Source: Bacillota bacterium
GTDB lineage: Bacteria; Bacillota; Dethiobacteria; DTU022
Assembly: GCA_033549065.1 (NCBI GenBank)
Contig: JAWSUE010000003.1
Location: 62,001-126,000, forward strand
Length of the DNA: 64,000 bases
Direction of reading: 5' to 3'
Shown here: positions 39,631 to 57,740 of the stretch, in pieces
Layout of the letters: each line of letters begins with the position of its first letter
Position numbering within the stretch: the first letter of the stretch is position 1
Notes under the pieces: model-generated
Seen by the model: only the letters and a program-made list of their open reading frames with translations
What the model was told of the DNA's origin: nothing
Database searches by the model: none
Translations under genes and position numbers: made by a program

Positions 39631-40290
39631 TCAGTCTTCCCGGACCTCTTTTTTATAATAAAGAGCACCTACAGGGCAGGCATCGACACAGAGTGTACAC
39701 TGGGTGCAGATAGATTCGGCCAGAGGAATATCCTTAAAGGTTGTCACCGCCCTATTTATTCCACGCCTGGTAAAACCGATAGCCCCAACTTTGGCTTTCT
39801 CCCGGTCAGCCCAGATACACTGACCGCAAAGCACACATCTGCTGCGGTCAAAAGCAAAAACTTCCGGGCTTTCATCAATTTCAAATTCCCTGGTAATTGG
39901 TTTAAACCTACGCTGCTGAAGTTTGATCTTTCGCTTGCTTGCTATTTCCTGGAGAGCACAGTTCTTGTTAGCCGGACATTCCCGGCACTTTAAATTGTGA
40001 TCAGATAAAATCAACTCAAAACCTGTTTTAATCAGCCGGTCGATCCTGGGACTCCTGGTCTTAACAATCATCCCATCCTGGACGACTTTTGTGCATGAAG
40101 TTACCGGATTCTTATAACCTACGATCTCAACGAAACAGAGGCGACAGCCGGCATTTGGTCTTTCTTCATCTTTAATAGCACAGAGGTGTGGAATATAAAT
40201 ATCATTTTCCAGGGCAACCCAGAGCAGCCTATCGCCCTCATTGGCTTTTATTTTCTTCTGATCAATAGTAATCCATATTTCCCTGCTCAT
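39631..40290 (-). CDS. HoxU/NuoG-like iron-sulfur subunit
   Basis: 219-aa electron-transfer subunit. A plant-type [2Fe-2S] domain uses C37, C49, C52, C66; a NuoG-type cluster site SDHNLKCRECPANKNC gives H98, C102, C105, C111; a double [4Fe-4S] domain follows. The second of these is complete (C195, C198, C201, C205), but the first reads CVLCGQCIWAD, with Asp162 where the fourth cysteine should be. Its start overlaps the NuoF-like stop by 4 bases. With the two upstream genes it forms a HoxEFU-type NAD(P)H diaphorase module; the catalytic hydrogenase or dehydrogenase subunit is not encoded here. Confidence 0.87.
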   Translation of the reverse strand: MSREIWITIDQKKIKANEGDRLLWVALENDIYIPHLCAIKDEERPNAGCRLCFVEIVGYKNPVTSCTKVVQDGMIVKTRSPRIDRLIKTGFELILSDHNLKCRECPANKNCALQEIASKRKIKLQQRRFKPITREFEIDESPEVFAFDRSRCVLCGQCIWADREKAKVGAIGFTRRGINRAVTTFKDIPLAESICTQCTLCVDACPVGALYYKKEVRED

Positions 40291-42197
40291 TTAACCGCTC
40301 CCTCCTTTTCCTTCGGCAGGACCGGTGGTGATAGTTTTACAATTGCATTGTATTCAGGTGGACAAGCCTTCAAACAGTTATCGCATTTTACACATTTTTC
40401 CTGATCAATTTCCTTCAGGCCGTCCTCCCTTGTAAAAATCGCTTCTGTGGGGCAGCTGCCAACGCAAACATTACATAGTTTGCTGCACTTAGGTGGTTTT
40501 ATGTAGTAAAGGATCAGGTCCCGGCAAACCAGTGCCGGACAGCGTCCTTCCTCTATATGTGCCCTATATTCATCACGGAAATACTTTAGCGTAGTCAATA
40601 CCGGGTTTGGAGCTGTCCGTCCGAGGTTACAGAGAGAACCGTCTCGCACATCTTCGGCCAGTTCTTCAAGCAGGGTCAAGGATTCCATAGTGCCCTTGCC
40701 ATCAGTTATATCAGTCAGTATATCAAGCATATGCTTCGTACCCAGGCGGCAAAAAGTGCACTTTCCGCATGATTCATGCTGAGTGAATTCCAGGAAGTAG
40801 CGGGCAACGGCCACCATGCAATCGTCCTGATCCATTACTACCAGCCCACCGGAACCCATGATCGCTCCCGCATCATGGAGAGAATCAAAATCAATCGGCA
40901 CATCGAGAGCCGATTCTGGTAGGCAACCACCGGAGGGTCCGCCAATCTGGACTGCTTTAAATTCTTTAGCATTGGGCAAGCCGTCACCCACCTCATAAAT
41001 CAGTTGGCGTAAAGTAGTCCCCATGGGAACTTCAACCAGCCCGGTATTTACAACTTTGCCAACCAGTGAGAAAACAGCTGTTCCCGGGCTATCCGGTGTT
41101 CCTATCGACTTGAACCAATCAGCTCCATTGCGGATTATCAGGGGCACATAAGCAAATGTTTTTACATTATTGAGGATGGTAGGCTTACCACGGTAACCTT
41201 TCTGAGCCAACCTGGGTGGTCTGCTTTCGGGAAGTCCCATTTTGCCTTCCATTGAATTAACAAGGGCGGTTGCTTCACCACAGACAAATGCTCCCGATCC
41301 CTGGAATACTTCAAGATCAAAATTAAATTTTGTTCCGAGTATCGCATTCCCCAAAAGTCCCATCTGCCTGGCCTGATCAATTGCCTGCTGGACATGCCTG
41401 ACAGCCCTGGGATATTCAGCTCTAATGTAGAGATAACCTTTTTGCGCACCGATAGCATAAGCGCAAAGAACCATCCCTTCAATAACCAGGTGAGGGTCAG
41501 ACTCTAAAATACTGCGATCCATAAATGCCCCGGGGTCACCTTCATCAGCATTACAGATAACATATTTCTCATTCTCGCTGCTGCTCAGGCAGGCTTCCCA
41601 TTTGTCACCCGCGGGGAATCCGGCGCCTCCCCGACCTCTTAAATTAGCTGCTTTTACTTCATTCAAAACAGCCAGCGGTTCATCTTCAAGGGCTTTGGCC
41701 AGTGCACTGTAACCGTCTCTGGCCAGGAAACTGTTAATGTCCCCGGCATCTATGTAACCACATTGTCCGAGGATCAATTTTTCCTCATGCACACCACGGG
41801 GAAAATCTTCAAAAGTGGGAAAGACGTCATTACGTTCAAGTGCGGCCAGGGCATATTCATAGCAGGGATCATCTCCTGCCAGGTAATCTTCAACCAACCT
41901 GTTAACCAATCCATCATCAAGTTTACCGTAACACATGGGGGGAAAACCCGGTTTGGCAATGACCGCCATCGGTTCAGCGTAGCAGTGCCCCATACAGCCT
42001 ACTTCAATTACTTCGGCATCCAGGCCTTTTTTCTCTATCCCTTTAACAAATTCATCTCTAACCTTCAGAGCACCTGCAGCCACTCCACATGTTGCAGTTC
42101 CCACTAGGATGCGGGTTTTCTCAGTTTTGGCTTCTTCCCTTGATTTAGCTTCATCTGCCATTCTTTGATAGATATCGAGAGGGTTCATTGAATTCAT
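40287..42197 (-). CDS. NuoF/HydB-like NADH-binding subunit
   Basis: 636-aa flavoprotein. An N-terminal thioredoxin-like segment (LVGTATCGVAAGALK to VGCMGHCYAEPM), then the NADH/FMN domain (ANLRGRGGAGFPAGDKW; CNADEGDPGAFMDRSI), a SLBB region, the N3 [4Fe-4S] site ESCGKCTFCRLGTKHM with a fourth cysteine in SLCNLGRTAPNP, and a C-terminal double [4Fe-4S] ferredoxin domain (CSKLCNVCVGSCP; CVKCDNCLKACPP). Architecture is that of bifurcating hydrogenase/formate-dehydrogenase beta subunits. It lies two bases after the NuoE-like gene. Confidence 0.93.
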   Translation of the reverse strand: MNSMNPLDIYQRMADEAKSREEAKTEKTRILVGTATCGVAAGALKVRDEFVKGIEKKGLDAEVIEVGCMGHCYAEPMAVIAKPGFPPMCYGKLDDGLVNRLVEDYLAGDDPCYEYALAALERNDVFPTFEDFPRGVHEEKLILGQCGYIDAGDINSFLARDGYSALAKALEDEPLAVLNEVKAANLRGRGGAGFPAGDKWEACLSSSENEKYVICNADEGDPGAFMDRSILESDPHLVIEGMVLCAYAIGAQKGYLYIRAEYPRAVRHVQQAIDQARQMGLLGNAILGTKFNFDLEVFQGSGAFVCGEATALVNSMEGKMGLPESRPPRLAQKGYRGKPTILNNVKTFAYVPLIIRNGADWFKSIGTPDSPGTAVFSLVGKVVNTGLVEVPMGTTLRQLIYEVGDGLPNAKEFKAVQIGGPSGGCLPESALDVPIDFDSLHDAGAIMGSGGLVVMDQDDCMVAVARYFLEFTQHESCGKCTFCRLGTKHMLDILTDITDGKGTMESLTLLEELAEDVRDGSLCNLGRTAPNPVLTTLKYFRDEYRAHIEEGRCPALVCRDLILYYIKPPKCSKLCNVCVGSCPTEAIFTREDGLKEIDQEKCVKCDNCLKACPPEYNAIVKLSPPVLPKEKEGAVK

Positions 42198-42199
42198 TC

Positions 42200-42742
42200 T
42201 TAATGTTCCTCCCCTTTTTGCATTTCCGGCTCTGATACTTTTTCTTTGTCGGATTCCTCAAAGGTAAGCATAATTCCATCAACCCGGGTTGGTGTTACTT
42301 TCCCTTCCACTTCTTCATTTACGACTACAACCGGGGCCAATGTGCAGCAACCGACACAGGCTACCCTTTCCAGGCTGTATAGACGATCAGCGCTTGTTTC
42401 TCCTTCTTTTATTTTCATCCTTCGCTCGAATGATTCAAGGGTTATATCCCCGCCTACCATGTAACAGGCTGTTCCAAGACATACTTTTACCTGATGTTTG
42501 CCCGGTGGGTTGAGACGAAATTGGTTATAAAATGTAGCCAAACCATAAACATCTGCAGCCGGGATATTTAATCCCTCCGAAATCTTTTCCATGGCGAGGG
42601 CGGGAAGATAGCCTAGTTTGGCCTGGACTTTCTGAAGAACGGGAATTAAGTCTTCGCGGTTTTTGCTGCTCTTACTAATTACTTCCTGTACAGATGCAAG
42701 GATCTGCTCTCTTTCACCTTCTAAAAGTTGCAACGAATACAT
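42200..42742 (-). CDS. NuoE/HydC-like [2Fe-2S] subunit
   Basis: 180-aa subunit with the [2Fe-2S] thioredoxin-fold domain: CLGTACYMVGG (C-x4-C) and VACVGCCTLAPVVVVN (C-x3-C). The N-terminal helical part (LIPVLQKVQAKLGYLPALAM) is standard for the 24-kDa subunit. A Glu/Lys-rich tail of about 20 residues follows. First gene of the three-gene diaphorase, coupled closely to the NuoF-like gene. Confidence 0.93.
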   Translation of the reverse strand: MYSLQLLEGEREQILASVQEVISKSSKNREDLIPVLQKVQAKLGYLPALAMEKISEGLNIPAADVYGLATFYNQFRLNPPGKHQVKVCLGTACYMVGGDITLESFERRMKIKEGETSADRLYSLERVACVGCCTLAPVVVVNEEVEGKVTPTRVDGIMLTFEESDKEKVSEPEMQKGEEH

Positions 42743-42851: not shown

Positions 42852-43970
42852 CTAACTCGACACGGGGAAGATCAACTCTTCCCTGTAACCGGTTACAATC
42901 CTGTAATAACCCCGGAGTGCTTCATCCAGCTTTTCGTCACCGGTATCTACCAAAAGATGTTTATTGTCGAGGGCCAGAATTTTCTCCTTCGATGCAATAA
43001 TAATAATATTTTCTTTCCCGGCCTGATTTATTACCGTAGAGCTGATCTGCTGGTTACCGCGACCAAAGATATAACCCTGGCCACCGATTACAGTCACGAT
43101 TATTTTCGTTTTTCTTCCTTTTATTATTCGCAGTATATCTTTTTCTCCGGCATCTCTGGCCAGTAGCTCTTCATTCAATACCAGATCAACTCCAAGCAGG
43201 CTATAAGCCAAGCCAAGCTTTTTCATGATCGGAACAGTCGTGGAGCCGGGACCGATGATATAGATTACATCCTGCTCCATATTTTCGACAACCTGTTCGG
43301 CTATCGCCAGCAGCACCGATTCTTCAGTTTCCGCCCCGCCTACCTTCAGATGCTGCATTAAACTTCCGGCCTTGGGTACATAAAGATATCCGTAAAGGCA
43401 TGCAGATAGCCTGCCTGCACGAAAGGATTCTTCGTCGATATCCATAACTTCAGCCAGGTGGACGTGAATACCGGAATCCATCATATACATTCTGGCCAGT
43501 TCACCGGCATTTCGCGGTGTGGTTGCATATACAGCAGAATGTATTTTTACCCCTGCCGGGATACCGATTACCGGCAAATCGGGGCTGTCTCCCAGGGCAT
43601 TGTATATATTACGGGCTGTGCCATCTCCGCCGGCAAAAAGGAGCAAATTGACACCGTTTTCTCTCATCGATAATGCCGCTTTTTCAGTATCACGGGCCGA
43701 AGTCGGCTCATCAATACCCTCGATCAGTGACGGCTCGAATCCACACTGCCGGGCTGCATCTTCTCCCATAGAGCCCGGGCAAGTAATCATTTCAATCTTC
43801 TCCCGAATGTCTGTGAGCATTTTAAGCGCCATGACAGCTCTTTGGGCAGATTCCGGTTTCGCACCCAGGGTCAGGGCTTTTTTAACTATTTCCGGCCCAT
43901 CGGTCCCTTTTAAACCGACCCTTCCACCCATACCGGCTACTGGATTGATGATTAATCCTAATTTTTTCAT
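42852..43970 (-). CDS. acoX: AcoX-like ATP-NAD kinase family protein
   Basis: 372-aa protein of the NAD kinase superfamily, as in AcoX of acetoin/glycine operons. Motifs: LGLIINPVAGMGGRVGLKGT at the start, the kinase GGDGTARNIYNA (GGDG) and VIGIPAGVKIHSAVYATTP. The C-terminal half (YIIGPGSTTVPIMKKLGLAY) is AcoX specific. Start overlaps the lpd stop by 4 bases. Real substrate is unproven; in this context it could tune NAD/NADP for glycine synthesis or cleavage. Confidence 0.87.
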   Translation of the reverse strand: MKKLGLIINPVAGMGGRVGLKGTDGPEIVKKALTLGAKPESAQRAVMALKMLTDIREKIEMITCPGSMGEDAARQCGFEPSLIEGIDEPTSARDTEKAALSMRENGVNLLLFAGGDGTARNIYNALGDSPDLPVIGIPAGVKIHSAVYATTPRNAGELARMYMMDSGIHVHLAEVMDIDEESFRAGRLSACLYGYLYVPKAGSLMQHLKVGGAETEESVLLAIAEQVVENMEQDVIYIIGPGSTTVPIMKKLGLAYSLLGVDLVLNEELLARDAGEKDILRIIKGRKTKIIVTVIGGQGYIFGRGNQQISSTVINQAGKENIIIIASKEKILALDNKHLLVDTGDEKLDEALRGYYRIVTGYREELIFPVSS

Positions 43971-45376
43971 AACCGCCCAAAATGAAGACCAGTCTTATTA
44001 ATGGCCATTGCCGCTTCCCAGAATGATTCACAGAGAGTCGGATGGGGATGAATCAACTCGGCCAGTTCAACTGCACGAACACCCTGAGCAACAGCCAGTG
44101 CTCCTTCCTGAATCAAATCGGAAGCATGAGGCCCGAGTATATGCACCCCAATTACTTTTTGATCTTCACCAGCTGCGATAATTTTTACAGCGCCCTCGGA
44201 TTCACCCTGGGTAGCTGCTTTTCCGCTGGCTGAAAAGGGGAATTTTCCGATTTTCAGATCTTTATAACCCTTATCCTTCGCTTCCTCCTCCGTTAAACCA
44301 ACACAGGCCAACTCAGGATCGGTAAATAAACAATTCGGCACTACACTTCCATCAAAATATGACTCCTGCCCGGCGATATTTTCAGCAGCAACAATTCCCT
44401 GATGATAGGCCACGTGGGCTAGGAAATAACCAGGTGCAGTTGCATCACCGACAGCATAAATCCCGGGAACTGTTGTTTCCATTCTTGTATCTACTTCAAT
44501 GCCTTCATCACTGAATGCTACTCCCAGGCCTTGAAGATCCTGACCACCGAAAGCTGCCCTGCGTCCAACAGATAGCAGAACTTTTTCTGCTTCAACAATC
44601 TCTTCTCCCTTACGACTCTCAACAATCAGTCTTAAACCGTTATCAAGAGCCTCAATGTGTTTAACAGGACTGTTCATCATTATCTCCAGACCGCCCTTAC
44701 GAAGGTAGGTAGATAAACGGCGGACCATTTCGAGATCCATCCGACGTAGAAGCCGTTCACTGCGATGAACAATGGTTACCTTGGTGCCCAAACCGGAGAA
44801 TATCGAAGCCATCTCCAGGGCAATTACTCCCCCACCGATTACAGCCATTGTATCTGGCAGTTCTTCAAGGGCCAGAGCCTGGTCAGAAGTGATCACTCCA
44901 GGCAGATCAAGGCCGGGAGTGGGAGGGTAGATTTCTTCACTACCGGTTGCCAGAATTATATTATCTGTTTCAATTTTAATTTCCTCTCCGCTGTGCAGCT
45001 TGATGCTGATTAATTTCTCGCTAAGAGCTTTACCGGCTCCAAGGTAAACATGGACCTTGCTTTTTTGTAAAAGTTCACCGATATGACCGGTTAGTTCCGC
45101 TACAACTGCGTTTTTCTTTTCCTGAAGGCGGCTAAAAGAAAAATTAATGTTTGAAAGACTGAAACCAAATTCTTCGGCTTTATGAATACGCTTATACATT
45201 GCAGCACCATGGGTAAGCACCTTAGTGGGAATACATCCGTGGTTTAGGCAGACACCACCAAGCGCTTCTTTTTCAATGACTGCTGTTTTGAGACCAAGTG
45301 AACCGGCCCTTAATGCTGCAAGGTATCCGCCGGGACCACCCCCGATGATGGCTACCTGATATTTTTCACTCATCAT
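43967..45376 (-). CDS. lpdA: Dihydrolipoyl dehydrogenase (L-protein)
   Basis: FAD enzyme that re-oxidises dihydrolipoyl-GcvH with NAD+. 469 aa. FAD motif VAIIGGGPGGYLAALRAG, redox disulfide C43/C48 in GGVCLNHGCIPTKVL, NAD motif MAVIGGGVIALEMASIF and GIYAVGDATAPGYFLAHVA, and the catalytic His-Glu pair in HPHPTLCESFWEA. Encoded beside lipoyl-assembly genes and the glycine cleavage operon rather than a 2-oxo-acid complex, so its partner is most likely GcvH. Confidence 0.95.
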   Translation of the reverse strand: MMSEKYQVAIIGGGPGGYLAALRAGSLGLKTAVIEKEALGGVCLNHGCIPTKVLTHGAAMYKRIHKAEEFGFSLSNINFSFSRLQEKKNAVVAELTGHIGELLQKSKVHVYLGAGKALSEKLISIKLHSGEEIKIETDNIILATGSEEIYPPTPGLDLPGVITSDQALALEELPDTMAVIGGGVIALEMASIFSGLGTKVTIVHRSERLLRRMDLEMVRRLSTYLRKGGLEIMMNSPVKHIEALDNGLRLIVESRKGEEIVEAEKVLLSVGRRAAFGGQDLQGLGVAFSDEGIEVDTRMETTVPGIYAVGDATAPGYFLAHVAYHQGIVAAENIAGQESYFDGSVVPNCLFTDPELACVGLTEEEAKDKGYKDLKIGKFPFSASGKAATQGESEGAVKIIAAGEDQKVIGVHILGPHASDLIQEGALAVAQGVRAVELAELIHPHPTLCESFWEAAMAINKTGLHFGRL

Positions 45377-45457: not shown

Positions 45458-46216
45458 TTACTGTACTTTCAGCAACGTATTCAAACTGGAAAAAACTGCG
45501 GGGATAACCATCGAAAAGCCTTTTACTAATGCCCTTGTCATTCGTTCATAACTAACATTGTACCCAAGGTCAAGCAAACCTGCCGCCTTCTCTGTAAGTT
45601 CAGCTTGCGGATTATGATCAGGATGATGTTTCCCCGGTTTTAACAGGCTGGAATATAATTCGGCAGGAAGTTCAAAAAGTATGGCGCCGTGCTGCAGAAC
45701 AATGCCATCCCGCCTGAGTTGAGCACTGCCGACTACTTTTTTCCCGTCTATCTTTATCTCATAGGCAGACGGAGTATCAAAACAAGAACCGGGGGCAAGT
45801 CCGGCCTGACCTTCTTTTTCCGGAGTGATCGAGGCCGTAATGCCCAATAAGCTGAAGGCGGTAACTATACCGCGGCTGATTGCCCGGTAGGCATCCAATA
45901 CGCCACCCCGGTTAATAAAAGGGTGGATCTCAGGCACAACAATGCTGTAAGTTAATTCATGATAATGGAGGACTGCCCGCCCGCCTGTCGGTCTGCGAAC
46001 TACATCAATCCCTTTTTCCCGACACCCCTCGAGGTTAACCACTTCATCTTCATCCTGAAAATATCCAATGGAGAGCGTCGGTGGGGACCAACGGTACAAA
46101 CGCAGGGTGGGAGGGCATTCACCGGATGCCACTTCTTCCATAATCGCTATGTCTTTCTGCATATTATCAAGCCCGGTCATGGGTGGGTCGAGAATTAAAC
46201 GCCATTGGTGGTGCAC
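45458..46216 (-). CDS. lipM: LipM-like octanoyltransferase (lipoate-protein ligase family)
   Basis: Transfers octanoyl from acyl carrier protein to GcvH. About 252 aa. The family motifs are RRPTGGRAVLHYHELTYS and IDGKKVVGSAQLRRDG ; a conserved cysteine lies in GSCFDTPSAYEI, as in the LipM catalytic cysteine, distinguishing it from LplA. GTG 46216 is chosen because GGAGGG lies 8-9 bases upstream; the start overlaps the radical SAM gene stop by 22 bases. Octanoyl-GcvH made here is the substrate for the two radical SAM neighbours. LplA-type lipoate salvage is the alternative. Confidence 0.82.
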   Translation of the reverse strand: MHHQWRLILDPPMTGLDNMQKDIAIMEEVASGECPPTLRLYRWSPPTLSIGYFQDEDEVVNLEGCREKGIDVVRRPTGGRAVLHYHELTYSIVVPEIHPFINRGGVLDAYRAISRGIVTAFSLLGITASITPEKEGQAGLAPGSCFDTPSAYEIKIDGKKVVGSAQLRRDGIVLQHGAILFELPAELYSSLLKPGKHHPDHNPQAELTEKAAGLLDLGYNVSYERMTRALVKGFSMVIPAVFSSLNTLLKVQ

Positions 46217-47199
46217 CTGGTTTTCCCTCCCGGATAGAAACAACTATAATTAATTGAATCAATTAAGACTTTTAACTCTCCTGCTTTTTCGGCCTGACCA
46301 AGCGGGCGATGGTAATTATAAATTGTTCCGCCCGGACGTTCATTGTAATATGGCCGGTTACAATCGGAACAGCCGCTCGTCTGAAATGCTTTCCCATCTG
46401 ACAAAAGCCCAATTAAATTCTCTTCCGGTATACCATATGAAGCTACCTGGCCGTTAGTAAAAATTAATTCCTTAATATCTACTTTTTTCCTCAGAAGCAG
46501 GTAAAGTCCGGCCTGAATCCTTCGGTAGGAATCGAGCTCAGGTGATTCTCTCTTCTCCAACCTGGTTCCCTTAAGGGGAACAAATGCAAAAAGGGCAACT
46601 GTTACCCCTGCCTTGATTAATCTGTCGATCAAAACCAGTGTTTCCTCTTCAGTCTCACCCAAACCGCAAATAATATGTGTACTAACTCTACCTTTATACA
46701 GGTTGGCAAACTTTAGAAGCAGATCAAGACGGTCAGTAAATGAACCGCCCTTGATCTTTGTGAATGCTTCAGGATTAACCACATCAAGAGATATGCTAAA
46801 TCTGTCCACACCGGCATCAACTACAGCAGCAGCTTCAGCTTCATTTCTAATCCAGGCTGACAGCGACAGAGGTAGGTCAGATATACTTTTTATTTTTCTG
46901 ATTGTGCCAAGCAGGGTTTCAATCCCATCATTATGCCTGACCGATTGAAGACAGATTCTTTTGATTCCTGATTTCGCTGCAGTCCTGAAACCTTTTTCAA
47001 TTTCATCCCAGGTAAACTCCGGCCATGTCACCCTGCCGAGTTTATTCAGCGCTTCACTGCTGCTCAAACCCTGAGGGCAAAAAGCGCATTTCATCAGGCA
47101 CCGGTTTCCGGAAAGCAGGTAAGCAGTTGTAGGATAGCTATCCATTTTAATGCCGGTAAGCCCCAGGCAGGCGGCGGTGCCGGCTGAAAGACGGATCAT
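46195..47199 (-). CDS. Radical SAM protein, probable half of two-component lipoyl synthase (LipS type)
   Basis: 334 aa. The radical SAM site is SGNRCLMKCAFCPQGL (C-x3-C-x2-C); a C-terminal SGCSDCNRPYYNERPGG could bind an auxiliary cluster. Biotin-synthase-like core with IKRICLQSVRHND and VDRFSISLDVVNPEAF. ATG 47199 has GAGGAG upstream and overlaps the partner stop as ATGA. It is paired with a second radical SAM gene and LipM, matching the known LipS1/LipS2 lipoyl synthases that replace LipA. Which of the two is LipS1 or LipS2 I leave open, though the order suggests LipS2 here. Confidence 0.78.
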   Translation of the reverse strand: MIRLSAGTAACLGLTGIKMDSYPTTAYLLSGNRCLMKCAFCPQGLSSSEALNKLGRVTWPEFTWDEIEKGFRTAAKSGIKRICLQSVRHNDGIETLLGTIRKIKSISDLPLSLSAWIRNEAEAAAVVDAGVDRFSISLDVVNPEAFTKIKGGSFTDRLDLLLKFANLYKGRVSTHIICGLGETEEETLVLIDRLIKAGVTVALFAFVPLKGTRLEKRESPELDSYRRIQAGLYLLLRKKVDIKELIFTNGQVASYGIPEENLIGLLSDGKAFQTSGCSDCNRPYYNERPGGTIYNYHRPLGQAEKAGELKVLIDSINYSCFYPGGKTRCTTNGV

Positions 47200-48071
47200 A
47201 AAGAACAGCACTCCTCTGAAACTTTTATTGAGAGTCCCAAATTTACAGCCAGACGCCTGGTTTCCGGGCCCGGTAATACTATTTTGTTTACCCCGGCTTT
47301 TACAGCATATTGATCAACCTTTTCCCTGTAACTACCTCCAGGACGCATACATCCGAGGTAAAGCGGGGTTCGGGGAAACATCAGGCGGGCGGTAGCTATA
47401 AACCTGGCTACTTCTTCCGGTGACGGGGGTTCCGCTGCACTGAATTCTGTACCTTCGGTTGGACGAAAAATAATCATGCAGATCGCTTCAACTGCTTCGT
47501 TTCTCAGTAATTCCAGCGCCCTGTATTCAGAGTTTATTCTGCCGGAATCAAGACCAACGCAGATATGGGGAATCACGCTGTTATATTTAAGCAGATGACG
47601 GTATGAGGAAAGATAATCGTCAACAGTAGCTGACAGGCCGTACACTTTAGCAATTGTTTCATTGTCACCGACGAAGTCAAAAGATATTACCCGGGCAATT
47701 TTTGATAATTTTTTCGCTTCCGCTTCATTAACCAATCCCGTATGAAGATTAAGAGAACCCCTGTCGGCGAGTTTTTCCAGTTGATCCCATTTGTCAAAAA
47801 GTGGAACCTTGCCATTCTTGTCGGATCCGCCTGATACAAGATAGCTGCTTTCATTGTTATATTTTTTTCCCATAATCTCTTCGAGAGGGACCATCTTCTT
47901 CAGGTATTGTCCACCACAGTGGGCACAATTAAGCGCACACCTGCTTCCTGTCACACTAACAGCCAGTGTCTTGCCGGGAATGGTAAACTCAATTAGATCC
48001 GGGAAAAAAGCCTGACGAACATTCCAGGCCTGTTCGAGAATCTTGTCCAATCTATTTATATTCTGAACCAT
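47196..48071 (-). CDS. Radical SAM protein, second half of two-component lipoyl synthase (LipS type)
   Basis: 291 aa. Radical SAM motif SRCALNCAHCGGQYL (C-x3-C-x2-C), then SYLVSGGSDKNGKVPLF, TGLVNEAEAKKL and IPHICVGLDSGRIN. Additional cysteines near the end (LGCMRPGGSYREK; EECCSL) are candidates for the auxiliary [4Fe-4S] cluster that donates sulfur. GGAGGG precedes ATG 48071. Directly coupled (ATGA) to the next radical SAM gene. No lipA was seen in the window. Confidence 0.78.
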   Translation of the reverse strand: MVQNINRLDKILEQAWNVRQAFFPDLIEFTIPGKTLAVSVTGSRCALNCAHCGGQYLKKMVPLEEIMGKKYNNESSYLVSGGSDKNGKVPLFDKWDQLEKLADRGSLNLHTGLVNEAEAKKLSKIARVISFDFVGDNETIAKVYGLSATVDDYLSSYRHLLKYNSVIPHICVGLDSGRINSEYRALELLRNEAVEAICMIIFRPTEGTEFSAAEPPSPEEVARFIATARLMFPRTPLYLGCMRPGGSYREKVDQYAVKAGVNKIVLPGPETRRLAVNLGLSIKVSEECCSL

Positions 48072-48103
48072 TAAACCCTCCATAACCTATCATTTCAGGA
48101 GAA

Positions 48104-48155: not shown

Positions 48156-49271
48156 TCAAAGCAGTTCTTCTATAGGAGTATAAGGCAGTTCCAGTGAACT
48201 GGCGACAATCTCATGAACAATCTTACCGGCATATGTATTCATACCCTTGGCGAGTGCACTGTCTTCTTTTATGGCATTTTCCAGGCCTTTATCTGCAATT
48301 TTCAGGGCATAGGGTAGTGTGGCATTGGTTAAAGCAAGGGTGGAAGTTCTCGGCACTGCTCCCGGTATGTTCGCCACGCTGTAATGAATCACACCGTGTT
48401 TTTCGATGATCGGGTCGCTGTGCGTGGTCGGCATATCACATGTTTCAATACACCCACCCTGATCAATTGCTACATCGACAACAACCGATCCCGGTTTCAT
48501 CTGCATAATCATCTCTTCAGTAACGATGTGAGGAGCTTTTGCTCCGGGGATCAATACCGCACCAACCAGCAGATCCGCTTCTGCAACCAGCTTGCTGACC
48601 CAGTAGTGATTAGATATCACGGTATCAATACGACCACCAAATATATCATCAAGATAACGCAGTTTATTGGCGTCTATGTCGAGCAGGCTAACCCTGGCAC
48701 CCATGCCGAGCGCTACTTTAGCGGCATTTACCCCGACCATGCCCCCGCCGATGACAACCACATGAGCAGGAGGAACACCGGGAACTCCACCAAGCAGAAC
48801 GCCGGCTCCACCGGCTCTCTTTTCAAGGTAATGAGCTCCAACCTGGACAGCCATTTTCCCAGCTACCTCACTCATTGGAGCCAACAGGGGCAGAGACCGG
48901 TCAGCTTTCTGGACCGTATCGTAGGAAATTCCCGTTACCTTACTTTCCATCAGTGCTTTAGCAAGTTTTGGAGCTGCTCCCAGGTGCAAGAAAGTAAAGA
49001 GAACAAGGCCTTCTCTGAAATAAGCATATTCTGAAGTCTGCGGTTCCTTGACTTTCAGGATCATTTCCGATCGGCTAAACAGATCATCCGGCTCGGCAAT
49101 TATTTCTGCCCCGGCATCTTTGTACTGTACATCCGAAAAACCGCTTCCCTCACCTGCTAATTTTTCGATCAATACTTTATGGCCGGAATTTACAAAAACT
49201 TCAACACCTCCGGGTGTGATAGCCACCCTGTTCTCATCACTTTTTATTTCCCTGGGCACACCAATGATCAT
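48156..49271 (-). CDS. ald: Alanine dehydrogenase
   Basis: NAD-dependent oxidative deamination of L-alanine to pyruvate and ammonia. 371 aa. N-terminus MIIGVPREIKSDENRVAITP, substrate Lys/Arg and LVLFTFLHLGAAP, VAGKMAVQVGAHYLEK, the Rossmann motif HVVVIGGGMVGVNAAKVALG and VDVAIDQGGCIET. ATG 49271 follows GGAG at a proper distance; an upstream in-frame ATG lacks a site. In a Stickland fermenter alanine is an electron donor that pairs with glycine reduction, so this placement next to gcv and grd genes is meaningful. Confidence 0.95.
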   Translation of the reverse strand: MIIGVPREIKSDENRVAITPGGVEVFVNSGHKVLIEKLAGEGSGFSDVQYKDAGAEIIAEPDDLFSRSEMILKVKEPQTSEYAYFREGLVLFTFLHLGAAPKLAKALMESKVTGISYDTVQKADRSLPLLAPMSEVAGKMAVQVGAHYLEKRAGGAGVLLGGVPGVPPAHVVVIGGGMVGVNAAKVALGMGARVSLLDIDANKLRYLDDIFGGRIDTVISNHYWVSKLVAEADLLVGAVLIPGAKAPHIVTEEMIMQMKPGSVVVDVAIDQGGCIETCDMPTTHSDPIIEKHGVIHYSVANIPGAVPRTSTLALTNATLPYALKIADKGLENAIKEDSALAKGMNTYAGKIVHEIVASSLELPYTPIEELL

Positions 49272-49425
49272 TTTTATCAACTCCATTCAGATGATTTGAA
49301 AGCAAGGTTATCGGCCGATGATTATTCTGCTATTAAATATTATATGCGAAAGAAGAAGGCAGGGGAAGCAGAAAGAGTCAAACCTTTCCTGCGTCACCAT
49401 TGACTTTAATCATTATTGACCAGCC

Positions 49426-50883
49426 TTACCCTTTATGCCACCGTAATACCGGATTGCGGGCAGCCCTGACCTCATCCAACCGTCCTACAACGGTTTTATA
49501 AGGACCATGGGCAACTTTTTCAGCATCTTCGTTGATATCTCTGGCAATCTGTTCCATAACAGCGGCGAATTCATCCAGAGTCTCTTTACTTTCAGTATCA
49601 GTCGGTTCGATCATCAGGGCTTCTTCCACGATCAATGGGAAATATACCGTTGGAGGATGGAATCCTCTGTCGAGCAAAGCTTTGGCAATATCGCCCGCCC
49701 CCGCTCCCATTTTCTTTTCCGGTCTTGCAGAGAGAACAAATTCATGCTTGCAGATACGGTCATAAGGCAGATAGTATGTATTCTTCAAAAGGTTCATCAG
49801 GTAGTTGGCATTGAGAACTGCATCGGATGCAGCCTGTTTCAGGCCATCCCCGCCCATCATGCGCAGGTAAGTGTAAGCTTTGATCACTACCCCGAAATTT
49901 CCGTAGAAAGAATGAACCTTGCCGATACTATCCGGCAGATCATAATTGAAAATATATTTATCTTCCGCCTTATCAACAAGTGGAACCGGTAGGAACGGCA
50001 CCAGTCTTTCTTTTACTCCAACCGGGCCTCCTCCTGGTCCACCACCACCATGGGGGGTGGAAAATGTTTTATGAATATTTAGGTGGACAACATCAAAACC
50101 CATATCGCCCGGTCGGGTATAACCCATGATCGCATTCATATTTGCCCCGTCATAATAGAGTAAGCCTCCGGCTTCATGGACGGTCTTGGCGATGGCTATA
50201 ATATCTTCTTCAAATAATCCGAGGGTGCTCGGGTTGGTCAGCATCAGGGCAGTTGTGGTTTCATCAACAACTTCTATTAAGGCTTTCAGATCGACGAGAC
50301 CGCGCTCATCGCAGGGCACCTGGATCACATCATAGCCGGCCATGCTAACAGTGGCAGGGTTAGTGCCATGAGCTGAAAGCGGGATTAGCACTTTATTTCT
50401 CTTGTGGTCGCCCCTTTTACGGTGGTATGCCTGAATTATCATTAATCCCGTCAATTCACCGTGAGCGCCCGCTGCCGGTTGAAGGGTGAATCTATCCATT
50501 CCTGTCAGTTCTTTCAGGCACTTCTCCGTATTGTGCAGCAGTTCCAGTGCACCCTGGGCAGTTTCCTCCGGTTGGCAGGGATGCATAAGTACAAAGCCGG
50601 GCAAAAGAGCCGCTTCTTCATTTACCTTCGGGTTATATTTCATGGTACAGGAGCCCAGGGGGTAAAAACCGGTGTCTACGCCAAAGTTGCGGGTCGACAG
50701 TTCCGTAAAGTGGCGGACAACCTCCGCTTCTGACAGTTCGGGGAGCTCCAGGGGCTCCTTACGCTGGAGTTTAGCCGGTAGTAGTTCATCGATTTTCTTT
50801 TCCGGAACATCGCAGGCTGGCAAAGAATATCCCTGGCGCCCTTCACGGCTCATTTCAAATATTAGCTTTTTAGATTTTCTCAT
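49426..50883 (-). CDS. gcvPB: Glycine dehydrogenase (decarboxylating) subunit 2
   Basis: PLP-bearing half of the split P-protein; decarboxylates glycine and loads methylamine onto lipoyl-GcvH. About 485 aa. Key segments: [51 protein letters not shown], and the PLP lysine in [23 protein letters not shown] 50883 overlaps the gcvPA stop as ATGA, with GGAGGG upstream. Split P-protein is usual in Firmicutes. Confidence 0.96.
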
Positions 50884-52229
50884 TTCCATCCCTCCAGCTC
50901 ACGAACCAGGGTGTCAATCTCTTCCCGGCTTCTGTTTTCTGTCACAGCAATCAATACTGTATTTGGCAGCTCGGGATAAAATGGTGATATATCTACACCG
51001 CCGAGTATATTTTTCTCCAGCAATTTTCTGTTCAATTCGCAGGGATCTCCCGGGAGGGTGACGGCAAATTCCTTGAAGTAAGCTCCGCTGAAAGGTGTAA
51101 CATATCCATCAAGGACAGTAATTTTATCCCTCGCGTATGCAGCTTTTTGCAGACATTGTTCAGCTACTTCCCGCATGCCCTTGGGGCCTAGAGTTGACAT
51201 GTAAACCGAGGCAGCGAGAGCAACAAGGGCTTCATTCGAGCAGATATTTGAAGCTGCCTTTTCTCGCCGTATATGCTGCTCCCTTGTCTGCAGGGTTAAC
51301 ACGAATCCCCGATTTCCTTCACTGTCAACTGTTTCACCGGCAATACGTCCGGGCATCTGACGGACAAATTTATCACGGGCTGCCATGATACCTAGAACCG
51401 GACCGCCGAAAGATGCGGAGACACCGAGCCCCTGACCTTCTCCGACCACAATATCTGCTCCGTACTCTGAAGGTGCCTGCAGCAGTGGTAAAGAAAGCGG
51501 ATCAGCGGAAACAACAAATACTGCTTTATGAGCATGGATCAAATCGGCAACGTCATCCATATCTTCAACCAGACCAAAAAAGTTAGGCTGTTGAAGAACT
51601 ACCGTGGCTATGTCATCACCAAGCATTTTCTCCAGGCTGTCCTTATCTGTACAGCCCTCTTTCAGAGGAATCTCCTCCAGTAGAAGGCCACGGCTGTAAA
51701 AATAGTTTTTCAGGACAGCCCGGTAAAAGGGGCTTACAGAACGGGAAACAAGAACTTTGGAGCGCCTGGTAGCGCCACAGCCCATAACCGCTCCCTCGGC
51801 GACAGCAGTTCCGCCATCATACATCGAAGCATTGGATACATCCATCCCCGTCAGTTGACAGATCATCGTCTGGTATTCAAAAATTGCCTGCAGAACACCC
51901 TGGCTGACTTCGGGCTGATAAGGCGTATAGGATGTATAAAACTCGCTGCGACCGGTTATATGCTTAATGACTGAGGGAATAAAGTGATCATAGATCCCTG
52001 CTCCCATAAATGAAACTGAATTCTGGAAATGCTTATTTTTCGCGGCCAATCCATTCAGGTGCTTGAGAACCTCTGATTCCGATAAAGCCGGAGGAAGCTC
52101 GAGGCCCCTTTTCAAGCGGACTTCTGCAGGAATATCGGCAAAAAGATCATCAACCGAGCCGGCACCGATAGCAGCAAGCATTTCACGCCTGTCCTCATCG
52201 GTCAGGGGAAGATAATGTTTACCACCCAT
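50880..52229 (-). CDS. gcvPA: Glycine dehydrogenase (decarboxylating) subunit 1
   Basis: Second half of the split P-protein, 449 aa, same fold as GcvPB but without the PLP lysine. Recognised by [51 protein letters not shown] and the [14 protein letters not shown] segment. Four bases after gcvH, overlapping gcvPB. Confidence 0.96.
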
Positions 52230-52232: not shown

Positions 52233-52631
52233 TTATTTCTCCTCCTCCTCTACCACATATTTTTCGTAAGTCTCTTTATCCATTAAGCTGGCATACTGGT
52301 TTTCATCTTTTATCTCGACTTTGTAAACCCACCCTGCACCATATGGATCGGAGTTGATCAGCTCCGGTTGGTCAAGCAGTTCTTCATTAACTTCGACTAC
52401 TGTGCCATCTACCGGGGCATAGAGATCAGCTACAGCTTTTACTGACTCGATCACGGCTGAACCCTTACCCACTTCTACTTCAGCACCGACATCGGGCAGC
52501 TCAACAAAAACAATCTCTCCCAGTTTATCCTGGGCATAATCACTTAGCCCGACTACAACTGTATCGCCCTCCTGACGAGCCCACTCATGTTTCTTGGTAT
52601 ACCTGATACCATCAACAATCTTGTATTTCAT
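52233..52631 (-). CDS. gcvH: Glycine cleavage system H protein
   Basis: Lipoyl carrier shuttling the aminomethyl group among P, T and L proteins. 132 aa. Lipoylation lysine K65 in VIESVKAVADLY. N-terminus MKYKIVDGIRYTKKHEWARQ and C-terminal GWVYKVEI are standard. Its ATG shares one base with the gcvT stop (TAATG). It must be lipoylated, presumably by the LipM and LipS proteins downstream. Confidence 0.96.
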   Translation of the reverse strand: MKYKIVDGIRYTKKHEWARQEGDTVVVGLSDYAQDKLGEIVFVELPDVGAEVEVGKGSAVIESVKAVADLYAPVDGTVVEVNEELLDQPELINSDPYGAGWVYKVEIKDENQYASLMDKETYEKYVVEEEEK

Positions 52632-53734
52632 TATTTTTTCCTCCTGTAAAAAGGTAATTTTGTTGTCCGCGCCCGGTAAGCCCGGCCACGAATCATCACA
52701 CTTACTTCACTGTATTGGTCAATAACATTGGGATCCAGAAATGCCATTGCAATAAACTTGTCAAGTGTTGGAGAGTAAGAACCGCTGCTGATCCAGCCGA
52801 TTTCACTATCTCCGTGGTTTACAGGATAACCTTCCCGCGGTACTCCGCGTTCCAGCATTTCAAGACCGTATAGCATCCTGTCCATTCCGGTTTCTTTCTG
52901 CTTAATCAGGGCTTTCTGTCCGTTAAACTCATTAGCTTTATTGAGAACAACAAACCGCTCAAGACGGGCCTGCAGTGGAGTTATCTCCCTGCTCAACTCA
53001 TGCCCGTAAAGAGGCATTGCCGCCTCCAGTCTCAGCACATCCCTGGCTCCCAGTCCTGCCGGATTAAGTTCAAAACTTTTTCCTGCTTCCCACAGGGCAT
53101 CCCATAAGCCGGGTGCAGCATCATTGCTGCAGTAAACCTCAAACCCATCTTCGCCAGTGTATCCGGTTCTGGAAACCAAACAGCTGACACCGGCAACATT
53201 TACTTCCGGTAGAAAGTTATAATACTTCATTTCGTCCAGTGAAATGTCCGTTAACTTCTCTAGTATAAAAACACTATTTGGTCCCTGCAGGGCAATCTGA
53301 GCATATTCGGCTGATAAATTTCTTAATGTTACATCTTCTGTAACATTTTCCCTGAACCAATCAAAATCTTTATCGGTATTTGCCGCATTTACAACCAGGA
53401 AAAACTTATCGTTTTTGATTCTATAAACCAGAATGTCATCAACTACTCCACCGTCAGGATAGCAAACCGGACTGTAAATAATTGCATTATCTTTTAACCG
53501 GTTTAGATCATTGGTCAGGACTTTCTGTAAAAAACTGCCTGCACCAGGGCCTTCCACCAAAACTTCCCCCATGTGTGAGACGTCAAATACTGTTGCCCGT
53601 TTTCGGGTATCATGAACTTCTTCAACCAGCCCCTTGGAATACTGGACCGGCAAAAACCACCCACTGTAATCAACAATTTTCCCTTCTAACTGCAGATGTT
53701 TTTCATAAAATGGTGTTTTCTTTGCCTCACTCAA
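52631..53734 (-). CDS. gcvT: Aminomethyltransferase (T-protein)
   Basis: Transfers the methylene of aminomethyl-GcvH to tetrahydrofolate, releasing ammonia. 367 aa. FDVSHMGEVLVEGPGAGSFL, the folate-binding Asp/Tyr region YDLSHMGEI-like start, SRTGYTGEDGFEVY and LGARDVLRLEAAMPLYGHE. TTG start at 53734 with AGGAGG about ten bases upstream. First gene of gcvT-gcvH-gcvPA-gcvPB, after a glycine riboswitch and terminator. Confidence 0.95.
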   Translation of the reverse strand: MSEAKKTPFYEKHLQLEGKIVDYSGWFLPVQYSKGLVEEVHDTRKRATVFDVSHMGEVLVEGPGAGSFLQKVLTNDLNRLKDNAIIYSPVCYPDGGVVDDILVYRIKNDKFFLVVNAANTDKDFDWFRENVTEDVTLRNLSAEYAQIALQGPNSVFILEKLTDISLDEMKYYNFLPEVNVAGVSCLVSRTGYTGEDGFEVYCSNDAAPGLWDALWEAGKSFELNPAGLGARDVLRLEAAMPLYGHELSREITPLQARLERFVVLNKANEFNGQKALIKQKETGMDRMLYGLEMLERGVPREGYPVNHGDSEIGWISSGSYSPTLDKFIAMAFLDPNVIDQYSEVSVMIRGRAYRARTTKLPFYRRKK

Positions 53735-54260: not shown

Positions 54261-54470
54261 TCAGCCTCCGCCACCGAACCCAATATTCTTAACTTCCCCG
54301 TTTTCAACTACCACAGGTACCCTGTCAGCCTTGAAATCTTCCCTGGCCTTTTTTAAAGCTTCAGGATCTTTGCTGACGTTGTATAGATTATACTCAACTC
54401 CTTTACGATCAAGCACCGAAAGTTGTTTTTCACAGTAAGGACAACCGTCTTTAACATATATCTCAAGCAT
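54261..54470 (-). CDS. Glutaredoxin-like protein
   Basis: 69-aa thioredoxin-fold redox protein. Active site CPYC in VKDGCPYCEKQLSVL, cis-Pro in DRVPVVVENG, C-terminal GFGGGG. It starts MLEIYVKDG (ATG 54470 with GGAGG). Last gene after grdB, in the place where thioredoxin or thioredoxin reductase stands in other grd operons, so it probably supplies electrons to reduce the selenoenzyme. No trxA/trxB is in the window. Confidence 0.88.
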   Translation of the reverse strand: MLEIYVKDGCPYCEKQLSVLDRKGVEYNLYNVSKDPEALKKAREDFKADRVPVVVENGEVKNIGFGGGG

Positions 54471-54540
54471 TACTAACACCTCCTTCATTAAACAATATAA
54501 TTATAAAAAAAATACAAAAACCCTTTTTAAAAGAATCTAA

Positions 54541-55860
54541 TCATTTTTCGAAAACTGTCTGTTCCTGAATATCTGTCTGAAGTGCAACCAATGCCTTATC
54601 GACAAGCGAACGTCGTAATTCTTTTTCTTCTGGTGCTGATAATTCCGGATTTCCTAACGGATGCGGGATTGCCACCGCAGGTACGATCCGGTTCGCTCCA
54701 ACTGTAAGTGATATTGGAACGACTGTACATATGTGTACAACCGGCAAGCCTGCCCTTTCAATCTCTTTGACCATCGCTGCACCGCAGCGAGTACAGGTGC
54801 CTCACGTTGAAGTCAGTATAACAGCATCTACACCTGCTTCAGCAAGGTCGGCGGCAATAGCGGCACCATAGCGGGCAGCATTTGCAACAGAAGTACCGTT
54901 ACCAACTGTTGCATAATGATAGGGATGAAGCTTCTTTACAATTCCTTTTGATTCAAAATCCCTCATTACATCCAGAGGTAATACCCGGTCGGGATCCTGG
55001 TTGGCATACACCGGATCATAACCGCCATGTGCTGTTTCATGCGATTCCCGGGTCAGGTCATTCAGACCTTCCAAGCTGTATTTGCCATATTTTGAGGCAC
55101 TTGAAGATTCTATCCGGTCCGGATTTCCTTTCGGTACAATTCCTCCCGAAGTCACCAATGCAACAGTCGCATTACTCATATCAACTATCGGAGGCTGCGG
55201 TTGCACACGATCGAAATCGGGCATAGGCAGTTCAGTTACATAAGGCTCTACCTTAAGTTTAGCAATTAACATTTTTACCGCACGTTCTGCACCGGTTTCT
55301 TCTGCAAAATAGTTTTGCCTGATTCCCCTGGGTAAGTACCCCTCATCCGAGGGAGAACCTACCGGCTCCTTGTCAACAAGTTTATAGAGCAGGGAAACCA
55401 TTGTTGGGACGGCATCGCGCATGCCCCGAGCCGAATCGGCCGTAGAGATAATGTATATATCTTTACGATAGAGTTCAGCGCCAGGGTTTTCAAGATACAT
55501 TCCCGTTACTACCGGTATTTTCAACTCCTGACTAACAGCCTGACCTACAGCACCACAGGCTAGACCATAGCGTCCGGCGTTGAAGGCCGGCCCGGCCACA
55601 AGGGCATCGGGCTCATATTCTTTAACCAAATTAACAATTTCCCTGGTTGCCTGTTCAATATTATCAGCAACATAGTTATCGCCGCAAATGACCGTGGCAA
55701 CGACTTCTCCCCTGTCACCAAGAGATTCCTTTACGGCAATTCCCGGGCCTACCGGACCGACCTTTACGAGAGGCTTGGTACCGGCCATATCTTCGCCACC
55801 AATTTGGCCAAAAAACTGATTCAGGTAATGAATTACTCTTAATTTTTTTTCTGTAACCAT
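54541..55860 (-). CDS. grdB: Glycine reductase component B gamma subunit, selenoprotein
   Basis: Selenoprotein that binds the amino-acid substrate with the pyruvoyl GrdE and passes a carboxymethyl group to GrdA. 439 residues when the in-frame UGA at 54804-54802 is read as selenocysteine 353; the motif is LTST-U-GTCTRCG (U-x2-C-x2-C). The upstream part starts VTEKKLRVIHYLNQFFGQIG and includes AHGGYDPVYANQDPDRVLP; the downstream part AAMVKEIERAGLPVVHICTV to NPELS. Homology on both sides of the UGA rules out a true stop. A hairpin follows the UGA. AGGAGGGG precedes ATG 55860. Confidence 0.95.
54774..54804 (-). promoter_or_regulatory. grdB UGA selenocysteine codon and candidate SECIS hairpin
   Basis: UGA at 54804-54802. 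From 54790 to 54774 the RNA can fold TCGCTGC-GGT-GCAGCGA, a 7-bp stem with a three-base GGU loop, about 12 bases downstream of the UGA, the usual bacterial SECIS position. Confidence 0.7.
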
Positions 55861-55892
55861 TTTACCCCTCCTCTCCTGAAGTTTTGATCATT

Positions 55893-57179
55893 CTAAAAAC
55901 CTTCCCCGCGGAGTTTGCTGAAACCAAGCTCATTGGTCGAACCGATTATTGCCTGAATTTCGACCTGCAAACTGCCATCTTCTTTAAGCGCTCCGGCGAA
56001 TCCACCGGCTATCAATTCTGCAGTACTAATGTCACCAATTATTCTTTTACGGGGTGGCAGTTCAATTGTTTCATTGGCATTTCCGACACTGATGACAGCA
56101 TCAGCTTCGGGCACCGCATCAGCAAGAGATTGAGAAGCGCCATCACGTCCGGCGTATTCATCAGTTATCAGAACCGTTTTAATTCCAAGGGTTTCAAGCT
56201 TACGGCAATTCATTACAAGGTCAGTATCTGGATTTCCAAAACCTTCCTCTGATACAATAGCTCCATCGGCTCCAATCATTTTAACCAACCCAGCTGCATA
56301 ACTTGAAGATCTTTCTTTGTCGGCAAGCGTAACATTTTCATTGCTGATTACTACACCAATAAAAGATAGTTCCTGACCATGATACTTGAATAGTTCTCTA
56401 ATAACAGGGTTATTCTGGTGATGAAAGGTAGTATTTTTATCACAGGCAGAAACGCAGTTACCGCTTACTATGGCGCCATCGAATACCTCTGCTGGATTGA
56501 TCAGCGTAGGGATGATCCTTTTGGCATCTACTCCGTAAACGTAGGTGTCATGCAGTAATCCCTGGGTTTGGAGCATGTAAAGGTAGGCTACTTTAGGCAA
56601 TGCAGGATATTTTGCTGCATTCTCAAGAATAGAGCCTGTATCATAAGTTTCAATATGATCTGGCTCAATATTACTCCCGGCTTTTCCTAGATATGCTGCT
56701 GCTTCTAAACCGGCCATCCGTACTGTCTGCTCATGTTTGTGCTGGGCTAATCCTTTTTCTGGAGTGATAGTAACAACAAGATTCAGGGTTTTTGAAAATG
56801 GTGTATACTCAGCTCCGGGTCCACTCATGTCGATTATTCCTTCCTGGAAACCGACAATTTTCCCGGTTGTCACTACAGCAGTACCGGCAAGGACATGCGT
56901 CCGCCCATTACCAACTTTCTCAACTTTGCTGATAAAACCGGGAAATACACCTCCGGGTCCTTTGACCTTTACTCTCGGCTCGATTACATCTTTTACCGGA
57001 ATGATTCTTACATCATCACCGGGTTTGGCCAGGTCCAGCTCAACATTTTCGATATTCGGATCTTCTTTCAACAATTCTGTTAATTCTATTTTGTTTATAT
57101 AAAGACACCTGCTATGAACCTCAGTTTTGTCGCCAAATGCAATATCATCAATTTTTAATATCCCTAACTCAAGGCACAC
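55893..57179 (-). CDS. grdE: Glycine reductase component B precursor (pyruvoyl)
   Basis: 428-aa proprotein of the substrate-binding component B, normally cleaved to a 25-kDa and a 22-kDa chain with a pyruvoyl group formed at Cys242. Asn241-Cys242 lies in IVSGNCVSACDKNTT, exactly the expected site and number. Other recognisable parts: MCLELGILKIDDIAFGDKT at the start and GNANETIELPPRKRIIGDI near the end. GTG start at 57179 with GGAGGA. Between grdX and grdB. Confidence 0.95.
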   Translation of the reverse strand: MCLELGILKIDDIAFGDKTEVHSRCLYINKIELTELLKEDPNIENVELDLAKPGDDVRIIPVKDVIEPRVKVKGPGGVFPGFISKVEKVGNGRTHVLAGTAVVTTGKIVGFQEGIIDMSGPGAEYTPFSKTLNLVVTITPEKGLAQHKHEQTVRMAGLEAAAYLGKAGSNIEPDHIETYDTGSILENAAKYPALPKVAYLYMLQTQGLLHDTYVYGVDAKRIIPTLINPAEVFDGAIVSGNCVSACDKNTTFHHQNNPVIRELFKYHGQELSFIGVVISNENVTLADKERSSSYAAGLVKMIGADGAIVSEEGFGNPDTDLVMNCRKLETLGIKTVLITDEYAGRDGASQSLADAVPEADAVISVGNANETIELPPRKRIIGDISTAELIAGGFAGALKEDGSLQVEIQAIIGSTNELGFSKLRGEGF

Positions 57180-57253
57180 TAATTTTCCTCCTCTCTCTAG
57201 TTATTATTTCTGTAATTCTGTTATTCATCCAACTTTCTAAGACAATCGGGCTT

Positions 57254-57634: not shown

Positions 57635-57740
57635 ACCAATCGACCTTTCCAACCCGGGTTAAAGTAATGTACCTTAAACCACTCAGCAAGGCAGGTGAAT
57701 TTAGCTGCTTTTTGCTGCCACTTTCACCCAACCTTTGATA

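What the first reader, a model, noticed from the sequence alone, without database searches (positions are those of the whole stretch)
45458..48071. Two-component LipS-type lipoyl synthase with LipM next to the glycine cleavage system
Two coupled radical SAM genes followed by an overlapping octanoyltransferase, then lpd, fit the LipS1/LipS2 type of lipoyl synthase known from archaea and some bacteria. The pathway would build lipoyl directly on octanoyl-GcvH. The association with LipM (a Cys-dependent octanoyltransferase), GcvH and Lpd in one block makes GcvH the likely only client.
Basis: partly seen in the sequence, partly recalled or inferred. Interest (0 to 1): 0.5.

Follow-up and report, generated by a model that had tools for sequence, protein, structure and literature searches.

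The report
GcvH-dedicated LipS1/LipS2 lipoyl synthase operon
This anaerobic bacterium appears to build the cofactor lipoic acid with a known two-enzyme alternative to the textbook lipoyl synthase, encoded inside the glycine-cleavage gene block, and seems to use it for one protein only, GcvH.

Summary
Window 47196-48071 (-) and 46195-47199 (-) score above the curated NCBIfam cut-offs for LipS1 and LipS2. All cluster-ligand Cys/His residues mapped in Thermococcus LipS1/LipS2 have invariant counterparts here and in relatives, and the two proteins form clades apart from LipA and other radical SAM proteins. The third gene is a LipM-type transferase carrying a Cys loop that LplA and LipB lack. The genome (98% complete) has no LipA above cut-off, one LplA/LipB-fold enzyme (this one), one GcvH, and no 2-oxoacid dehydrogenase E2. 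In 60 related genomes LipS2 and GcvH co-occur almost perfectly (34 both, 23 neither, 3 discordant), while LipS2 does not follow E2. The block gcvTHPAPB-lipS1-lipS2-lipM recurs across Bacillota. LipS1/S2 with LipM is already published (PMC10332631), so this is a new member of a known kind. What it adds is strong genomic evidence for a single-client lipoylation module dedicated to GcvH, with LipA in the same lineage found beside other clients.

The parts
47196..48071 (-). lipS1, radical SAM lipoyl synthase component 1 (predicted second sulfur insertion, C6)
   Evidence: NF053742 277 bits, cut-off 230; Cx3Cx2C C49/C53/C56 and C245, C292, C293, H173 invariant in 29 of 29 aligned rows (numbering from the longer ORF 47196-48083)
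46195..47199 (-). lipS2, radical SAM lipoyl synthase component 2 (predicted first sulfur insertion, C8); ATGA overlap with lipS1
   Evidence: NF053743 348 bits, cut-off 270; C38/C42/C45, C87, C281, C284, H179 invariant in 30 of 30 rows (numbering from the longer ORF 46195-47211)
45458..46216 (-). lipM-type octanoyl-ACP:GcvH octanoyltransferase (ORF call from TTG at 46243; GTG 46216 preferred)
   Evidence: PF21948 127.9 bits, cut-off 27; C154 invariant in 25 of 25 rows, in a loop missing from two LplA and one LipB of relatives
43967..45376 (-). lpd, dihydrolipoyl dehydrogenase (L-protein)
   Evidence: TIGR01350 494.9 bits, cut-off 408.8
52233..52631 (-). gcvH, lipoyl carrier and predicted sole client; ESVKA lipoyl-lysine motif (motif recalled)
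   Evidence: TIGR00527 160.5 bits, cut-off 115.85; only GCV_H over cut-off in the genome; sequence
52631..53734 (-). gcvT
   Evidence: ORF, named from sequence by eye; conserved in place in relatives
50880..52229 (-). gcvPA
   Evidence: ORF, named from sequence by eye; conserved in place
49426..50889 (-). gcvPB
   Evidence: ORF, named from sequence by eye; conserved in place
48156..49286 (-). ald, alanine dehydrogenase, lying between gcvPB and lipS1
   Evidence: TIGR00518 545.7 bits, cut-off 391.85; not in this position in any of the 80 loci
42852..43970 (-). NAD-kinase-like protein overlapping lpd by 4 bases
   Evidence: PF01513/PF20143 over cut-off; found near the block in 19 of 80 loci

Best explanation
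The three genes encode a de novo lipoylation module for GcvH. LipM moves an octanoyl group from acyl carrier protein to the lipoyl lysine of GcvH. LipS2 then inserts sulfur at C8, and LipS1 inserts sulfur at C6, each with SAM and an auxiliary [4Fe-4S] cluster as the likely sulfur source, giving lipoyl-GcvH. GcvT, GcvPA/PB and Lpd use it in glycine cleavage (or its reverse). In this genome GcvH is the only client. Shown here: gene identity, conserved ligands, gene order, absence of LipA and of lipoylated E2, and co-occurrence with GcvH. Inferred from published homologues: the chemistry, the order of sulfur insertion and the octanoyl-ACP donor.
For: LipS1/LipS2 equivalog matches. Experimentally mapped ligands of T. 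kodakarensis LipS1 (C27/31/34, C230, C276, C277, H159) and LipS2 (C39/43/46, C85, C276, C279, H178) have invariant counterparts with like spacing. LipS1 and LipS2 each form one clade apart from LipA and nine other radical SAM proteins of the genome. LipA best score 28.7 bits against a cut-off of 203. One PF21948 protein in the genome; one GcvH; the strong Biotin_lipoyl hit is a biotin carrier (EAMKM, motif recalled) beside a decarboxylase-pump-like gene. The sole E2-like fragment matches a lipoyl-less E2-like protein (71% over 45 residues to L068, against at most 47% over 36 to real E2s). LipS2 x GcvH in 60 genomes: 34 both, 1 LipS2 only (73% complete), 2 GcvH only, 23 neither, Fisher p = 3e-13 (the genomes are related, so they are not 60 independent trials); on one contig in 27 of 34, 4.0-5.9 kb apart; the other 7 lie on different contigs of draft genomes. 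LipS2 x lipoylated E2: p = 0.39.
Against: No activity data. No curated LipM model was matched; the best NCBIfam hit is the LplA large subunit model far below cut-off (96.6 against 480). G033 has a lipoylated E2 but only LipS2 and a single LipM (79% complete), so the module may serve E2 in some relatives. G028 has E2 and LipA but only one transferase, the lipS-linked LipM, so that LipM may feed LipA there. LipS2 loci without gcvH within about 10 kb exist (6 of 36 full-flank loci). The genome is 97.8% complete, so a missing lipA or E2 is not fully excluded.
Confidence: 0.9

Rival explanations
1. LipS1/LipS2 are right, but the third protein is a lipoate/octanoate ligase (LplA catalytic part) that salvages free octanoate or lipoate with ATP, as the archaeal LplAB does.
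For: Best NCBIfam hits are LplA_large and LplAB, below cut-off; archaeal and many bacterial LipS1/S2 clusters carry Lpl-type ligases.
Against: C154 sits in a loop absent from LplA of G024 and G036 and from LipB of G043 and is invariant in 25 of 25 rows. Gaps leave no room for an LplB gene between lipM and lpd (81 bases) or ald and lipS1 (72 bases). LipM with LipS1/S2 is described for other bacteria. LplB elsewhere in the genome was not searched.
Confidence: 0.12
2. The module also serves other lipoyl domains, through a promiscuous LipM or lipoyl relay.
For: Relatives G024 and G033 have lipoylated E2 and LipS2 but no LipA.
Against: The window's own genome has no lipoylated E2 or second lipoyl carrier over cut-off. 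G024 has its own LplA on the E2 contig.
Confidence: 0.08
3. The radical SAM pair are biotin synthases or other sulfur-inserting enzymes.
For: Weak BioB and BATS-domain similarity.
Against: BioB scores 33 and 53 bits against a cut-off of 225; LipS1/LipS2 equivalog cut-offs passed; auxiliary Cys pair and His as in characterised LipS1/S2; gcv context.
Confidence: 0.02

Closest known systems
LipS1/LipS2 lipoyl synthase of Thermococcus kodakarensis (PMC9585515, abstract and one Results section read)
   Same: Two radical SAM proteins with the same radical SAM and auxiliary cluster Cys/His positions
   Different: Archaeal; there the partner is an LplAB ligase (PMC10332631, section 9). Here they sit in a gcv block with LipM
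sLpl(AB)-LipS1/S2 pathway of sulfur oxidisers (PMC10332631, abstract, four Results sections and passages read)
   Same: LipS1/S2 pair dedicated to a GcvH-like client encoded nearby
   Different: Client there is LbpA, with a ligase and often LipT; here the client is the genuine GcvH and the attaching enzyme is LipM-like
LipM with LipS1/S2 reported for Schekmanbacteria, Synergistota, Thermotogota (PMC10332631, section 8)
   Same: Same enzyme combination without a ligase
   Different: The sections read do not describe the gcv-linked Bacillota block; its supplementary tables were not available to check
Bacillus subtilis LipM-LipA-LipL relay (PMC7253636, passages and one section)
   Same: LipM octanoylates GcvH
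   Different: LipA not found here, only one LplA/LipB-fold protein, and no E2 to relay to

Membership tests
LipS1 lipoyl synthase | Curated equivalog score | tested here: met
   NF053742 277.1 bits, cut-off 230
LipS1 lipoyl synthase | Cx3Cx2C motif plus auxiliary ligands (Cys, Cys-Cys near C-terminus, His) | tested here: met
   C49/53/56, C245, C292-C293, H173 invariant in 29 of 29
LipS1 lipoyl synthase | Sulfur insertion into 8-mercaptooctanoyl substrate | not testable with these tools
   needs enzyme assay
LipS2 lipoyl synthase | Curated equivalog score | tested here: met
   NF053743 348.3 bits, cut-off 270
LipS2 lipoyl synthase | Cx3Cx2C motif plus C85/C276/C279/H178 counterparts | tested here: met
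   C38/42/45, C87, C281, C284, H179 invariant in 30 of 30
LipS2 lipoyl synthase | Sulfur insertion into octanoyl substrate | not testable with these tools
   needs enzyme assay
LipM octanoyltransferase | Single-domain PF03099/PF21948 fold, no accessory LplB domain | tested here: met
   261 aa, only the catalytic domain matched
LipM octanoyltransferase | Active-site Cys on a loop different from LipB | tested here: met
   C154 in a loop missing from LipB and LplA rows; identity with the B. subtilis LipM Cys is recalled, not aligned here
LipM octanoyltransferase | ATP-independent transfer from octanoyl-ACP | not testable with these tools
   needs enzyme assay
LipM octanoyltransferase | Match to a curated LipM model | tested here: inconclusive
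   no LipM model matched in NCBIfam; whether the library holds one for this branch was not checked
LipA lipoyl synthase | Score over LipA cut-off | tested here: not met
   26.3 bits for the LipS2 protein, cut-off 203; separate clade
BioB biotin synthase | Score over BioB cut-off | tested here: not met
   33.2 and 53.4 bits, cut-off 225

The most novel reading that the evidence does not exclude
In a large group of anaerobic Bacillota, lipoic acid synthesis has become a one-client pathway: LipS1/S2 and LipM travel with, are lost with and serve only GcvH, while LipA in the same lineage is kept only for other carriers (PDH-type E2, or a GcvH-related protein in a methyltransferase-like gene cluster). 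Some cells would then use separate lipoyl synthases for separate clients.
Probability: 0.6. Interest if true: 0.5.

Novelty: new member of a known kind. Interest (0 to 1): 0.36.

Why it matters
It gives a clean natural case of a lipoylation system with a single client. [quoted passage not shown] a living genome of that type, with relatives that carry E2, lets that idea be tested. It also shows that LipS1/S2 in bacteria is not tied to LbpA-type clients, and no LipS1 or LipS2 structure turned up in the solved-structure search, so compact bacterial homologues are useful targets.

Tried and rejected
The E2-like fragment in the genome (G000:C3:171381) first looked like the remains of a lost pyruvate dehydrogenase. 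It is closest to a lipoyl-less E2-like protein of relatives, so that reading was dropped.

Weak Biotin_lipoyl hits (L015-L018) were read by eye as two RnfC-like proteins, an ATPase subunit and a molybdenum-hydroxylase accessory protein, not lipoyl carriers (names recalled, not scanned).

A generic Radical_SAM search (PF04055) finds LipS2 but not LipS1, so it is not a fair test for LipS1 paralogues elsewhere in the genome. Structure prediction was not run, since the sequence evidence already decided family membership. A paper search for lipoyl synthase with glycine reductase, glycine cleavage and Firmicutes found none.

Full report
Observation. The minus strand carries gcvT, gcvH, gcvPA, gcvPB, ald, lipS1, lipS2, lipM, lpd and an NAD-kinase-like gene in that order from 53734 down to 42852. 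gcvT, gcvPA and gcvPB were named by eye from sequence. lipS1 and lipS2 overlap by the four bases ATGA if lipS2 starts at ATG 47199, the start that matches the N-terminus of relatives, and lipM overlaps lipS2.

Identity. LipS1 and LipS2 pass the curated equivalog cut-offs, and BioB and LipA models fall far short. The ligands found by mutagenesis in T. kodakarensis (PMC9585515, section on auxiliary ligands) have counterparts here with similar spacing, invariant across the aligned relatives (29 LipS1 rows, 30 LipS2 rows, window included; rows with less than 200 aligned residues were left out). A tree of 52 proteins puts LipS1 (19 rows), LipS2 (19 rows) and LipA (5 rows) each on one side of a well supported branch (97/97, 99/97, 100/100). 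The nine other radical SAM proteins of the genome used there, of 26 Radical_SAM matches, are mostly long branches, and the tree carries a long-branch warning, so it shows separation of groups rather than deep relationships. No T. kodakarensis sequence was at hand, so the residue correspondence rests on the published positions, not on an alignment.

The third gene. It is a single-domain LplA/LipB-fold protein. It has C154 in a loop PGSCFDTPSAYE that is missing from two LplA ligases and one LipB of relatives, and that Cys is also in a LipM-like protein beside lipA in G053. PMC7253636 states that the active Cys of LipM and of LipB lie on different loops. LipM is therefore the better reading, without a curated LipM match.

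The rest of the genome. The genome (2.39 Mb, 61 contigs, 97.8% complete) has no LipA over cut-off (best 28.7 of 203 bits), one PF21948 protein, one GcvH, a biotin carrier with the EAMKM motif as the only Biotin_lipoyl match over cut-off, and no E2 over cut-off. The one E2-like fragment is akin to a lipoyl-less protein. GcvH is thus the only lipoyl client detected.

Relatives. Of 60 genomes (own included), 35 have LipS2, 36 GcvH, 5 LipA and 34 a PF21948 enzyme. LipS2 and GcvH agree in 57 of 60; discordant are G035 (LipS2 only, 73% complete), G013 (GcvH fragment, 66% complete) and G037 (GcvH, with PF21948 fragments). They lie on one contig in 27 of the 34 genomes that have both, and on different contigs in 7. 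Lipoylated E2 is found in five genomes by full-length hits (G024, G028, G033, G036, G043); a partial hit in G055, lipoyl-less relatives in G003, G008 and G021, and the own-genome fragment were left out of the count. LipS2 shows no link with E2 (p = 0.39). LipA shows a borderline one (2 of 5, p = 0.05). Four genomes with LipS2 show no PF21948 hit (G012, G016, G021, G022) and three show the reverse (G036, G037, G049); the LipS2 contigs of those four end near the gene, so a cut contig is a likely cause.

Where LipA sits. The six LipA copies in five genomes were read in their neighbourhoods: two lie beside a lipoylated E2 (G028; G043, with LipB and Lpd), three beside lpd and a GcvH-like gene near methyltransferase-like genes (G053, G049, G057; the G053 and G049 genes match the GcvH-related family NF045810 below its cut-off, the G057 neighbour was named by eye), and one beside a LipM-like gene at a contig end (G053). 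The lipoylation enzyme thus tends to lie beside its presumed client. Exceptions are told: G033 has E2 and no LipA or second transferase; G028 has LipA and E2 but only the LipM of the lipS block.

Wider spread. The scan of named genomes gave 452 LipS2 relatives, of which the best 80 were kept and examined. LipS1 was found in 77 of 80, a LipM-type gene in 69, at least one gcv gene in 69, GcvH in 58. Many contigs are short; among 36 loci with full flanks GcvH is present in 30. The nearest named records are Syntrophomonadaceae MAGs; others include Dethiobacter, Desulfosporosinus, Desulfotruncus, Carboxydothermus, Halobacteroidaceae, Peptostreptococcaceae and Chloroflexi. This sample is the best-scoring part, so it leans towards near relatives.

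Against what is known. PMC10332631 (abstract, sections 7-10 and passages read) established LipS1/S2 in bacteria and reported LipM with LipS1/S2 where no ligase is present. The enzyme combination is therefore not new. The gcv-linked block in Bacillota was not described in the parts read; supplementary tables could not be read, and searches listed no other paper on it. I make no claim that it is unpublished.

Context. Upstream, 54.4-59.7 kb holds glycine reductase genes with in-frame TGA read as selenocysteine in grdB and grdA. The same organism could thus both cleave and reduce glycine, which would make lipoyl-GcvH central to its energy metabolism; that is inference.

Verdict. Enzymes of a known alternative kind, in a tidy arrangement that makes GcvH the sole detected client. 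Score 0.36.

Noticed in passing
window 54400-59694 (-): Glycine reductase gene cluster (grdB, grdE, grdA, grdC-like and a GrdX-like ORF, named by eye) directly upstream of gcvT; in-frame TGA codons consistent with selenocysteine in grdA (CFVU) and grdB.
   Followed up: partly
window 48156-49286 (-): Alanine dehydrogenase gene sits between gcvPB and lipS1; in the 80 loci it is never in that place.
   Followed up: partly
window 42852-43970 (-): NAD-kinase-like gene overlapping lpd by 4 bases, near the block in 19 of 80 loci; role in glycine cleavage unknown.
   Followed up: no
L157, L158, L159, L161: In relatives G053, G049 and G057, lipA and lpd stand beside genes for GcvH-related proteins (NF045810, below cut-off) among methyltransferase-like genes: a possible separate lipoyl-dependent one-carbon system.
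   Followed up: partly
L118, L121, L130, L137, L143, L149: Desulfofundulus and Peptostreptococcaceae-type loci have gcvH with lipS1-lipS2 but no gcvT/gcvP found in the stretch held; C. difficile L121 has a ferredoxin-like large protein between gcvH and lipS1.
   Followed up: no
L066, L067, L068 and G000:C3:171381-171500: Lipoyl-less E2-like proteins of about 275 aa in relatives, with a 52-aa fragment of one in the window's genome.
   Followed up: partly
window 39631-42742 (-): NuoE/NuoF/NuoG-like genes downstream of the block (by eye).
   Followed up: no
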